A stretch of 64,000 nt of DNA, from assembly GCA_038503075.1 (NCBI GenBank), contig JBCAML010000015.1, positions 558,001 to 622,000 of the forward strand. The letters are read 5' to 3'. A program made the position numbers and the translations under genes. The notes beneath the pieces are model-generated. The model did no database searches, was not told the origin of the DNA, and saw only the letters and a program-made list of their open reading frames with translations. This stretch comes from Gyromitra esculenta (lineage: Eukaryota; Ascomycota; Pezizomycetes; Pezizales; Discinaceae). This document shows positions 33,729 to 37,465 of this stretch, piece after piece. How positions within the stretch are numbered: position 1 is the first letter of the stretch; every line of letters starts with the position of its first letter.

Positions 33729-34847
33729 CTATTCCATGGCCATTGAGACATGATGCCCATGAGCTTTCAAAAGTGCATGCTGACGAGCTCTATCAAGATC
33801 AAACGTAACCATTTCAGCACACATTTCTTCGACCGTGATTTCAGGTTCCCAGCCTAGCTTGGTTTTTGCTTTTGTCGGGTCCCCCAGCAGTGATTCAACC
33901 TCTGCCGGGCGAAAGTAACGCGGGGATATTTTAACGATGACATCTCCCACTTTGACGGCAGGTGCCTTCATCGCATCAGTTACGGTGACGACGGCGCCGA
34001 TTTCATCTACTCCTTCGCCAGAGAACTCGATTATCAAACCGGTGTAAGCCGCAGCCATCCGCACAAACTCGCGAACGGAGAGCTGTCTGCCGGTTGCAAT
34101 AACGAAATCGTCCGGTTCATCCTGTTGGAGCATCATCCACTGCATGCGCACGTAGTCTTTAGCATGGCCCCAGTCGCGGAGAGAGTCGATGTTGCCTAGA
34201 AATAGAACTTTCTCGAGACCTTGCGCGATATTGGTGATTCCGCGTGTAATCTTGCGAGTGACAAAAGTTTCACCGCGGCGTGGAGATTCATGGTTAAACA
34301 GAATACCATTGCAAGCATATATACCGTAGGATTCGCGATAGTTTATAGTAATCCAATAAGCATAGAGTTTAGCCACGCCATAGGGTGAGCGGGGATGAAA
34401 TGGAGTGGTCTCCGTCTGCGGAGTTTCCTGCACAAGACCGTAGAGCTCCGAAGAAGAGGCTTGGTAGAAACGGGTTTTCCTCTCTAGGCCGAGGAAGCGG
34501 ATCGCTTCAAGTAGGCGAAGCGTGCCAATCGCGTCGACATTGCTTGTGTATTCTGGCGCTTCAAACGAGACGGCCACATGCGATTGCGCTCCGAGATTGT
34601 AGACTTCATCGGGCTTCACCTCACTCAGGATGCGAGTGAGATTGGAGCTATCGGTTAAATCCCCGTAATGGAGACGGAAGCGCGAATTCTTTATGTGGGG
34701 TTCTTCGTATATGTGATCCACGCGCCCTGTGTTGAAAAGTGAAGCGCGGCGCTTGATACCGTGGACTTCATAGTTCTTGGAGAGTAGGAATTCCGCAAGA
34801 TAAGAGCCATCCTGGCCTGTAACACCGGTGATGAGGGCTTTTTTCAT
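33729..34847 (-). CDS. gmd: GDP-mannose 4,6-dehydratase, bacterial-like
   Basis: First step of de novo GDP-L-fucose synthesis: GDP-mannose to GDP-4-dehydro-6-deoxymannose, NADP-dependent. One exon, 372 residues, the length of E. coli Gmd. Extended SDR hallmarks: ALITGVTGQDGSYLAEFLL (cofactor loop, 5-23), GIKRRASLFNTGRVDHIY, YGDLTDSSNL, YNLGAQSHVAVSFE, the S-S-E catalytic group in QASSSELYG (Glu134) and Tyr156-x3-Lys160 in SPYGVAKLYAYW. The C-terminal part has LGNIDSLRDWGHAKDYV, the substrate-binding region. The start at 34847 gives the family N-terminus; the frame runs on upstream to an ATG at 34961 and would add 38 residues with a hydrophobic segment, which I treat as leader. It lacks introns while most genes around have 1-6, and pairs with fcl 1.7 kb upstream on the same strand. 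Confidence 0.95.
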   Translation of the reverse strand: MKKALITGVTGQDGSYLAEFLLSKNYEVHGIKRRASLFNTGRVDHIYEEPHIKNSRFRLHYGDLTDSSNLTRILSEVKPDEVYNLGAQSHVAVSFEAPEYTSNVDAIGTLRLLEAIRFLGLERKTRFYQASSSELYGLVQETPQTETTPFHPRSPYGVAKLYAYWITINYRESYGIYACNGILFNHESPRRGETFVTRKITRGITNIAQGLEKVLFLGNIDSLRDWGHAKDYVRMQWMMLQQDEPDDFVIATGRQLSVREFVRMAAAYTGLIIEFSGEGVDEIGAVVTVTDAMKAPAVKVGDVIVKISPRYFRPAEVESLLGDPTKAKTKLGWEPEITVEEMCAEMVTFDLDRARQHALLKAHGHHVSMAME

Positions 34848-36529
34848 GACTGGATGAAAAGCGCGGAGCATAGAACGAAGAAAGAAAAGCAAAGAGACGA
34901 GGGCGTAAATGAAGAAGTTATTCTGACGGTCAGATTTTGACATCATTACTTCTCTGCGCACAGTTCTCTACTGTCTTCAGTAGGGCTGCGCATCGAGGGA
35001 TCGTATTGCCATGAAATATCTTTTCGATTTGAAGCGCTAGCCCGGCACAGACCGACAGGTTTTCGCATACAGATCTTCGAAATCTGGAGCTGCTGAAGAC
35101 TGCAGCATTGGATATCGCCAATAGCACCGCAGAAGACTCAGCTAGTTTTTTTGAGCTCAATTTCTAAGACTTTCTCCGCAGATTGCTCTCGGGACAGCTG
35201 ACATATCGACGATTATTTCGCGTAGCGAAACCAGTCGATTACCAATAGATTCTTGATTGGAGGAGCTGTATGATCAGCATGTTTCGGAATGTTTCGCGAA
35301 TCTAGATGTCAAGGACACAGAGAAAAGAGTGTAGAATTTAGAGAGAATAGCGCAGAAGGGTTGGGCGTAGGCCCCTCCTATATACTACTAAGTATGGAGG
35401 TTTGTGACATCATATCGACTGCTGTCGGCCATGTTCTTATCTGACTGCTGCTGACCCACATTAATATAGAGAAATCAATCATCCCCCACTAAATCAGTAA
35501 ATCAAAAAAGAAATGTAAAGACCTAGTAAAAATTAACAAGGCATAATCTAGCCACAGAGGAAAAGGAAAGGTAAGCGTTTCAAGATCACTTATGACAACA
35601 TAGAAAGGATTGGAGTAAGGAGATATTCTCCCACTGAATCCCGCATAAAAAAGAAACAAGAAAAGCCTCCGCTAAGGGCTTTGTCCATATCTACATCCAT
35701 ATTTATATCCTAACACTTACAACTATTCCTCTACATCGAATCATCGCTCAGTTCATGCCAAGTCCTCTTTCCATATTGAAGAGCTGTAGGTTACCCATAT
35801 TCAACGGGTATTTTCGTGTCTCTCCCAAGAAAATGCTTTGATGGTTCTTGATATCATAGTGATGGATGAGGCTAGGCAGCGGGGACTCTGCCAATTTGAT
35901 TGTTGATTAGACTTGGGATATGTAGACTTATGCCCAACCCCATTTATGCAGCTTGGTACGTGCCGTGAAGCAGCAGCCTAAGACAGCAGATGATGGGGGG
36001 CCTGACTTGTTCCATTCTCACGTTTATTAGAACCCTAAGATTTCACAGTTACCCGGATTTGTCTAGGCTTCAGCTAGCAGCTCCTTATAGCTCACTAGCG
36101 GGAACCCAGGCAATATTCAAGTAAATAGCTAGACTAAAGTAGATATAGAGGAAGGAGCCAATATACTCCATTATAGTTTAAGCGAGTGATACATTGTGTA
36201 CAAAATCATGTCTGCGTACAGCTCTAACGTACTAAGCTGTCAGCTATTTGCGGTTCCAAGCTCTGTTGATAACTTAGCTAAGATATATTTCTATAATCTG
36301 GGTTCTTGGGCTCTGGTATGATCCCAGCCAGGTCTCAGTAAAAGGCGCTATGTCTCTACTACTATATCTTAAAATAAAATAGCATCTAGAAGTGCTGCAC
36401 TTCGAAGTTTCGCTGTATATTATACAGAGTTATGGCATCATATCTGTCGACACCCACCAACCGTATTCCAGCAGCAGAAAGGCCGTAAGCCACAATCAGA
36501 GGCTTCTTCTATCCCCTCAGGATTCCCAC
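34848..36529. other. intergenic between gmd and fcl
   Basis: 1.7 kb of AT-rich sequence with frequent stops, holding the promoter of gmd. A short frame at 34930-35160 has no recognisable content. The spacing excludes a bacterial-style operon, so each gene must have its own promoter. Confidence 0.55.
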
Positions 36530-37465
36530 TCAAAGCCGCACTTCGCCAGTTATGAGTGATGCCTGGAAATCTGCATAAGCCTCAACCAAACCTTCAGCGA
36601 ACCCAACCACCGGCTTCCAGCCAGTCTCCTTAATCTTCGACACATCTAGCAACTTGCGAGGCGCGCCATCGGGCTTGGTAGGATCGGTAAGAATTTCGCC
36701 TTTGAACCCAACAGTCTTTGCAACAAGGCGCGCCAGATCATATATGCTAACATCTTCTCCTACTCCAACATTGACCCAATCAGGTGGGTTGCTGAGCGAG
36801 AGCAGATGGAAACAAGCAGCAGCCAGATCATTGACGTGTAAGAACTCACGACGTGGTGTGCCCGTGCCCCAGATCGTAACTGAAGCCGCACCATTTTCCT
36901 TCGCCTCATGGAAGCGCCGTATGAGCGCAGGAATCACGTGCGAGTTCTGCGTGTGGTAGTTGTCGCCTGGCCCATAGAGGTTTGTTGGCATCACGCTGTG
37001 GTAGAGCAAGCCGTGTTGAGCGCGGTAATGCTGGCAGAGCTTTAACCCAGCAATTTTGGCGATTGCATAGGCCTCGTTGGTATTCTCGAGCGGGCTTGTC
37101 AGCAAGCAATCCTCCAGCATCGGTTGCGGCGCAAGCTTAGGGTAGATACAAGATGAACCGAGAAAGAGGACCCGAGGAACGCCAGCCCGCCGGCTGCCTT
37201 CGATCAGATTTGAAGCAATCACGAGGTTTTCGTAGATGAAATCCGCTGGGTAGGTGGAATTTGCATGAATCCCTCCAACCTTAGCAGCAGCGATTATCAC
37301 CGTGTCGGGTTTTTCCACAGCCAGATAATTGAAAACGGCTGCTTGGTTTGTTAGGTCAAGCTGCTCACGACTCGCAGTCAAAATATCGGCATTTCCCAAC
37401 TTCTCAGCCTGGCGAACGAGGGCTGATCCAACCATACCACGGTGGCCTGTGATAAAAAGTTTCAT
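36530..37465 (-). CDS. fcl: GDP-L-fucose synthase (epimerase/reductase), bacterial-like
   Basis: Second and last step of de novo GDP-L-fucose synthesis: 3,5-epimerisation and NADPH-dependent reduction. One exon, 311 residues (E. coli Fcl/WcaG has 321). Cofactor loop FITGHRGMVGSALVRQAE; active-site residues align with the E. coli enzyme after an offset of three: Ser104 and Cys106 in LGSSCIYP, Tyr133 and Lys137 in AYAIAKIAG, His176 in NSHVIPAL. Further hallmarks are AAKVGGIHANSTYPADFIYEN, MPTNLYGPGDNYH, WGTGTPRREFLHVNDLA and DGAPRKLLDVSKI. All residues needed for activity look intact. The overall style is that of bacterial WcaG proteins. No intron. Together with gmd it forms a complete two-step pathway. 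Confidence 0.95.
   Translation of the reverse strand: MKLFITGHRGMVGSALVRQAEKLGNADILTASREQLDLTNQAAVFNYLAVEKPDTVIIAAAKVGGIHANSTYPADFIYENLVIASNLIEGSRRAGVPRVLFLGSSCIYPKLAPQPMLEDCLLTSPLENTNEAYAIAKIAGLKLCQHYRAQHGLLYHSVMPTNLYGPGDNYHTQNSHVIPALIRRFHEAKENGAASVTIWGTGTPRREFLHVNDLAAACFHLLSLSNPPDWVNVGVGEDVSIYDLARLVAKTVGFKGEILTDPTKPDGAPRKLLDVSKIKETGWKPVVGFAEGLVEAYADFQASLITGEVRL

What the first reader, a model, noticed from the sequence alone, without database searches (positions are those of the whole stretch)
33729..37465. Complete two-step GDP-L-fucose pathway of bacterial appearance in a fungal chromosome
gmd and fcl are both intact, intronless, on the same strand with nothing recognised between them, and carry all catalytic residues. 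Most other genes in the window have 1-6 introns. De novo GDP-fucose synthesis is uncommon in Dikarya (known well from Mortierella and animals/plants). Both proteins read like bacterial Gmd and WcaG in length and motif detail. Together this suggests transfer from bacteria, perhaps as a linked pair that later gained separate fungal promoters (1.7 kb spacing).
Basis: partly seen in the sequence, partly recalled or inferred. Interest (0 to 1): 0.8.

Follow-up and report, generated by a model that had tools for sequence, protein, structure and literature searches.

The report
Bacterial fucose-sugar gene pair in fungus
A fungus related to morels carries two neighbouring genes for making the activated sugar GDP-fucose that it most likely took, as a linked pair, from a Verrucomicrobia bacterium; what the fungus does with that sugar is not known.

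Summary
The genes are real: gmd (33729-34847, -) and fcl (36530-37465, -), single-exon, each the only close copy in a 47.1 Mb, 23-contig genome. The host is pezizalean, nearer Morchella than Tuber. The best listed hits, where named, are almost all Verrucomicrobia: Fcl 82-83%, Gmd 85%. Trees of bacterial relatives place both within Verrucomicrobiota; the exact donor is open. In 45 of 47 close bacterial loci gmd follows fcl on the same strand, as here; 28 of 33 more distant loci have the reverse order or no gmd nearby. This supports linked transfer. Flanks, codon use and absence of bacterial rpoB argue against contamination. One correction: Gmd's catalytic Thr132 is Ser here, Thr in 161 of 161 relatives; Gmd lost 9 of 217 near-invariant positions, Fcl 0 of 147. 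Six fucosyltransferase families gave no match, without a positive control. A 2023 survey reported no bacterial HGT among fungal fucose proteins (PMC10481521). New member of a known kind.

The parts
36530..37465 (-). fcl (wcaG-type), GDP-L-fucose synthase, 311 aa, one exon
   Evidence: ORF; Pfam Epimerase and best NCBIfam model GDP-L-fucose synthase, below its cut-off; solved E. coli GDP-fucose synthetase 355-361 bits; 147 of 147 near-invariant columns kept
33729..34847 (-). [quoted passage not shown] Thr132 of relatives is Ser
   Evidence: ORF; TIGR01472 570 bits over cut-off 415; 208 of 217 near-invariant columns kept
34848..34946 (-). possible 33-aa N-terminal extension of Gmd from an upstream in-frame ATG; hydrophobic, in pyrimidine-rich DNA; more likely 5' leader
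   Evidence: no relative aligns here; start not tested
34848..36529 (.). spacer of 1682 bases between fcl and the conserved start of gmd; G+C 0.43; single place in the genome
31623..32084 (+). resident fungal neighbour downstream of gmd: ORF of a Las1 gene
   Evidence: Pfam Las1
38867..39958 (-). resident fungal neighbour upstream of fcl: ORF of a PPPDE-thioredoxin-PUL gene
   Evidence: Pfam Peptidase_C97, Thioredoxin, PUL

Best explanation
The two genes came from a Verrucomicrobiales bacterium (Luteolibacter / Haloferula / Prosthecobacter / 'Akkermansiaceae' group) into the nuclear genome of a pezizalean fungus, most simply as one DNA piece carrying fcl-gmd. They settled between resident fungal genes and were kept by selection while the spacer grew and codon use moved towards the host's. 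They should work as the standard two-step pathway: Gmd turns the fungus's own GDP-mannose into GDP-4-keto-6-deoxymannose, and Fcl epimerises and reduces this to GDP-L-fucose. Shown here: homology, bacterial clade, gene order, single copy, long-term constraint. Inferred: one event, expression, activity, product. Unknown: what uses the product.
For: Best listed hits are verrucomicrobial where an organism is named, except one MAG labelled Gloeobacteraceae; nearest 83% and 85%. Both proteins fall with close verrucomicrobial rows in the trees (Fcl 100/99; Gmd 94/86). Gmd follows Fcl on one strand in 45 of 47 close loci, as in the fungus. The genome holds no second Gmd or Fcl beyond partial matches at 29-31%. 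Near-invariant columns are kept: 147 of 147 and 208 of 217, far more than random placement of the differences would give. Third-position G+C is 0.54 and 0.53, within the fungal ORFs' 0.41-0.58; bacterial medians are 0.80 and 0.77.
Against: AU tests do not reject trees with the window proteins just outside the close clade (p 0.384 and 0.463), and FastTree runs with 120 more proteins each give no starred set. The trees hold no eukaryotic rows. Some bacterial relatives have equally low third-position G+C, 4 and 8 of 96 bacterial sequences reach the two genes' codon scores, and gmd's score (0.10) lies just under the lowest of the 8 fungal ORFs (0.12). Gmd lost 9 near-invariant positions, a catalytic Thr among them; bacterial rows lose at most 3. 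No RNA or enzyme data.
Confidence: 0.87

Rival explanations
1. Bacterial contamination joined into the fungal contig by misassembly.
For: Proteins 82-85% identical to bacteria; no reads could be examined.
Against: The genes are separated by 1682 bases and flanked by AT-rich DNA without a blastn match to the 80 bacterial loci; no further bacterial gene was recognised beside them; codon use leans to the host's; no bacterial rpoB over cut-off in the assembly; 23 contigs for 47.1 Mb.
Confidence: 0.04
2. Two separate transfers from Verrucomicrobia, brought near each other by chance or selection.
For: The two trees have different nearest rows (L005 group for Fcl, L017 for Gmd), and the spacer is longer than any gap measured in the 45 close loci.
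Against: Same bacterial clade, same strand and the clade's own order; inner branches of both trees are weak.
Confidence: 0.06
3. Old fungal genes inherited vertically, or taken from another eukaryote.
For: GDP-fucose synthesis is predicted in scattered Ascomycota (PMC8092308).
Against: Among solved structures E. coli Gmd scores 653 bits, human 449, Arabidopsis 410; E. coli Fcl 355-361, human 155 (organisms of the entries recalled). Verrucomicrobial proteins reach 83-85% identity.
Confidence: 0.01
4. Transferred, but the pathway no longer makes GDP-L-fucose: Gmd is decaying or has changed its substrate or product.
For: Nine changes at near-invariant positions, Thr132 to Ser among them; bacterial rows lose at most 3. 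No fucosyltransferase family matched.
Against: The Gmd frame is open over its full length, 208 of 217 near-invariant columns are kept, the changes are mostly conservative, and Fcl, which needs Gmd's product, keeps 147 of 147. The transferase searches had no positive control.
Confidence: 0.1

Closest known systems
fcl-gmd gene pair of Luteolibacter / Haloferula / 'Akkermansiaceae' Verrucomicrobia (e.g. L005, L012, L017)
   Same: Same two enzymes at 83-85% identity to the nearest, same strand, same order
   Different: Spacer 1682 bases against a median of 71 over 45 bacterial loci (recounted); lower third-position G+C than most; nine changed near-invariant sites in Gmd
De novo GDP-fucose pathway reported in other fungi (Mortierellomycotina, Basidiomycota, some Ascomycota; PMC10481521, PMC8092308)
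   Same: Same two reactions
   Different: PMC10481521 finds mostly families known from metazoa and no bacterial HGT family; this pair is closest to Verrucomicrobia. No fungal sequence was compared directly
Horizontal operon transfers into Wickerhamiella/Starmerella yeasts (enterobactin and thiamine salvage; cited in PMC13376923)
   Same: Linked bacterial pathway genes kept together in a fungal chromosome (passages)
   Different: Other pathways, other hosts (yeasts); here two genes in a pezizalean fungus

Membership tests
GDP-mannose 4,6-dehydratase (Gmd) | Score over the curated equivalog cut-off | tested here: met
   TIGR01472, 570 vs 415 bits
GDP-mannose 4,6-dehydratase (Gmd) | Active-site Thr, Glu, Tyr, Lys (E. 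coli 132, 134, 156, 160; roles recalled) | tested here: not met
   Glu, Tyr, Lys kept; Thr132 is Ser, a conservative change, Thr in 161 of 161 relatives. I still file it under Gmd by descent; its activity is open
GDP-mannose 4,6-dehydratase (Gmd) | Converts GDP-mannose | not testable with these tools
   Needs an assay
GDP-L-fucose synthase (Fcl) | Score over the curated equivalog cut-off | tested here: not met
   NF047922, 467 vs 500 bits; 5 of 5 named or metagenomic verrucomicrobial relatives also miss it, 466-485, so the cut-off does not fit this clade
GDP-L-fucose synthase (Fcl) | Active-site Ser, Cys, Tyr, Lys, His (E. coli 107, 109, 136, 140, 179; roles recalled) | tested here: met
   Ser104, Cys106, Tyr133, Lys137, His176
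Bacterium-to-fungus transfer of a linked pathway | Genes nested in a bacterial clade with eukaryotic homologues outside | tested here: inconclusive
   With close verrucomicrobial rows at 100/99 (Fcl) and 94/86 (Gmd); inner place unresolved; no eukaryotic rows in the trees
Bacterium-to-fungus transfer of a linked pathway | Bacterial gene order kept | tested here: met
   fcl-gmd, one strand, in 45 of 47 close loci; one is cut by the contig end, one shows no gmd
Bacterium-to-fungus transfer of a linked pathway | Set in host DNA, not contamination | tested here: met
   Flanks, spacer, codon use, no bacterial rpoB; reads not examined
Bacterium-to-fungus transfer of a linked pathway | Expressed and active in the fungus | not testable with these tools
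   No RNA or enzyme data

The most novel reading that the evidence does not exclude
A pezizalean fungus without a recognised fucosyltransferase gained a complete GDP-fucose pathway from Verrucomicrobia and feeds it into an unrecognised fungal fucosylation route, with a Gmd retuned in the fungus (Thr132 to Ser and eight further changes at near-invariant sites).
Probability: 0.25. Interest if true: 0.72.

Novelty: new member of a known kind. Interest (0 to 1): 0.52.

Why it matters
A 2023 survey of fucose proteins in fungi concluded that no bacterial HGT families were present in the fungi analysed (PMC10481521, passages). This looks like a clear counter-example. It is also a compact case of a bacterial gene pair kept in order in a pezizalean fungus, with visible signs of settling in: a longer spacer, shifted codon use, and unequal change in the two enzymes. 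If active, it would give a relative of morels a sugar donor whose use is unknown, which sugar analysis and gene removal can test directly.

Tried and rejected
Viral origin: a scan of IMG/VR with Fcl gave 19 loci, best 81% (L086), no better than the bacterial matches; not pursued. Plasmid origin: 367 plasmid records matched at 60-80% DNA identity, none covering 80% of the query. Remnants of other donor genes in spacer and flanks: one of 111 six-frame pieces hit at E 0.003, antisense inside a bacterial fcl, taken as chance; no blastn hit. A repeat family in the spacer: one place in the genome.

Fucosyltransferase partners: PF10250, PF00852, PF05830, PF19745, PF03254 and PF01531 gave no candidate, but none of the 14 control genomes rang for them either, and introns can hide families, so absence is not shown. 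PF04488, another glycosyltransferase family, and PF00483 were found by the same search. Naming the host: only to Pezizales, near Morchella; Discinaceae or Morchellaceae is a guess. Host genomes related to it could not be searched.

Literature for this very transfer: the listings show no paper that I recognise as describing it; of the listed papers I opened three (PMC10481521, PMC8092308, PMC13376923). The library lacks most subscription papers.

Rows dropped: 5 of 67 gmd loci with matches of 900 bases or less were left out of the Gmd tree (script). Genome loci were capped: 561 relatives confirmed, the best 80 kept. Protein lists were capped: 120 of 8000 shown for each enzyme. The hand-typed gap list left out L038 and gave a median of 64.5; recounted by hand it is 71 over 45 loci.

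Full report
What is there. The window lies at G000:C15:558001-622000 in an assembly of 47.1 Mb in 23 contigs. On the - strand are fcl (36530-37465, 311 aa) and gmd (longest ORF 33729-34946; the conserved protein starts at the ATG at 34847, 372 aa). The next matches in the genome are partial and only 31% (Fcl) and 29% (Gmd) identical. Neighbouring ORFs match Las1, PPPDE-thioredoxin-PUL, GDA1/CD39 and Ams2/SPT21 in Pfam; an IF3-like and a GATA match are below Pfam's cut-offs.

Host. The ORF at 19656-22439 (Ams2/SPT21) has 12 unnamed relatives at 62-79%, then Morchella conica 60%, Choiromyces and Tuber 45-46%, Rhizina 42%. In a quick tree it lies in a group of 10 rows inside a clade of 14 that also holds Morchella conica. 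I read this as Pezizales, Morchellaceae or a sister family; a finer name would be a guess.

Origin. In a search of about 5.8 billion proteins the 120 listed Fcl hits are 79-83% identical and the 120 listed Gmd hits 81-85%. Where a source names an organism it is Verrucomicrobia (Luteolibacter, Haloferula, Verrucomicrobiaceae MAGs), except one MAG labelled Gloeobacteraceae; no fungal name appears. None of the 240 listed proteins has the window protein as its nearest relative in that set, so none looks like a hidden fungal orthologue. A scan of one genome per species confirmed 561 relatives; the 80 kept are Verrucomicrobiota or Planctomycetota by title.

Trees. For Fcl (81 rows) the window protein falls with 47 verrucomicrobial rows on a 100/99 branch, and within it in a set of 37 rows at 99/86. 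For Gmd (63 rows; 5 short loci left out) it falls with 45 verrucomicrobial rows on a 94/86 branch, with those and two planctomycete rows at 100/99, and next to L017 at 98/83, with a long-branch warning. AU tests do not reject trees in which it stands just outside the close clade (p 0.384 and 0.463), and FastTree runs with 120 further proteins each gave no starred set that holds it. So a verrucomicrobial source is supported and the exact donor is open. The trees hold no eukaryotic rows. The only comparison with eukaryotes is against solved structures: Gmd of E. coli 653 bits, human 449, Arabidopsis 410; Fcl of E. coli 355-361, human 155 (organisms of these entries recalled).

Linked transfer. 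Of 47 loci with Fcl at 73% identity or more, 45 have gmd after fcl on the same strand, one (L024) is cut by the contig end and one (L055) shows no gmd in the 2.3 kb that follow. Of the 33 more distant loci, 5 are fcl-gmd, 17 gmd-fcl and 11 show no gmd. The fungal pair has the fcl-gmd order. Bacterial gaps, measured between protein matches, range from 3 to 1408 bases with a median of 71 (45 loci, recounted by hand; the two largest rest on partial gmd matches); the fungal gap is 1682.

Not contamination. Spacer, upstream and downstream flank have G+C of 0.43, 0.41 and 0.38 and give no blastn match to the 80 bacterial loci. Third-position G+C is 0.54 (fcl) and 0.53 (gmd), against 0.41-0.58 in 8 fungal ORFs of the window and bacterial medians of 0.80 and 0.77, whose ranges (0.45-0.94 and 0.35-0.95) do include such values. 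Codon likelihood favours the fungal table for both genes: +0.29 and +0.10 bits per codon, against +0.12 to +0.65 for the 8 fungal ORFs and a bacterial median of -0.56; gmd is thus just under the fungal range, and 4 and 8 of 96 bacterial sequences reach the two values. A search for bacterial rpoB found nothing over cut-off; six weak matches fall at three places, as expected of the three eukaryotic polymerases (that reading is inference).

Constraint. Taking columns that at least 99% of 166 (Fcl) and 161 (Gmd) relatives share, Fcl keeps 147 of 147 and Gmd 208 of 217. If the differences from the nearest bacterial protein fell at random, 25 and 31.5 would have hit these columns (hypergeometric P about 1e-17 and 1e-11). 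Part of those differences arose on the bacterial side, in variable columns, so these figures overstate the case. In leave-one-out counts bacterial rows lose at most 4 (Fcl) and 3 (Gmd) such positions, so nine losses in Gmd lie outside the bacterial range. One is Thr132 to Ser in the active site; 161 of 161 relatives have Thr, as do the five solved chains shown. Both genes look selected, but Gmd has moved further.

Function. Gmd and Fcl should convert GDP-mannose to GDP-L-fucose (established for these families). Matches to the NTP_transferase family fit a supply of GDP-mannose but do not prove it. O-FucT, GT10, NodZ, FUT8, XG_FTase and GT11 gave no match; no control genome rang for them, so this is weak. 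PF04488, another glycosyltransferase family, was found by the same search.

Literature. [quoted passage not shown] PMC8092308 (passages and section 11 seen) predicts GDP-fucose in most Basidiomycota and sparsely across Ascomycota. PMC13376923 (passages seen) cites two horizontal operon transfers into yeasts. The listings show no paper that I recognise as describing this transfer.

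Noticed in passing
window 4001-10000: Block with G+C of 0.56-0.63 where most of the window is 0.41-0.51. It holds pieces of an ECH_2 enoyl-CoA hydratase/isomerase gene and a Peptidase_S26 signal-peptidase-like piece; the cause of the high G+C is unexplained.
   Followed up: partly
window 42062-42826: A GDA1/CD39 nucleoside-diphosphatase ORF lies 4.6 kb from fcl. Golgi GDPases serve the use of GDP-sugars (recalled), so the nearness is suggestive, but it may be chance.
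   Followed up: no
window 34848-34946: Upstream in-frame ATG would add 33 residues with a hydrophobic stretch to Gmd; the DNA is pyrimidine-rich, as in fungal leaders (recalled), so this may be untranslated.
   Followed up: no
L086 (IMGVR_UViG_3300025153_000247) 3001-3930: A contig listed as viral ends in an 81% identical fcl: a virus that carries it, or a bacterial contig wrongly called viral.
   Followed up: no
P0001, P0012, P0029, P0035, P0115: The NCBIfam Fcl equivalog cut-off (NF047922, 500 bits) misses all 5 verrucomicrobial Fcl proteins tested (466-485 bits), so pipelines that rely on it may under-call this clade.
   Followed up: partly
L055, 2-757: A verrucomicrobial fcl at 83% identity without gmd in the 2.3 kb that follow: the exception to the fcl-gmd order.
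   Followed up: no
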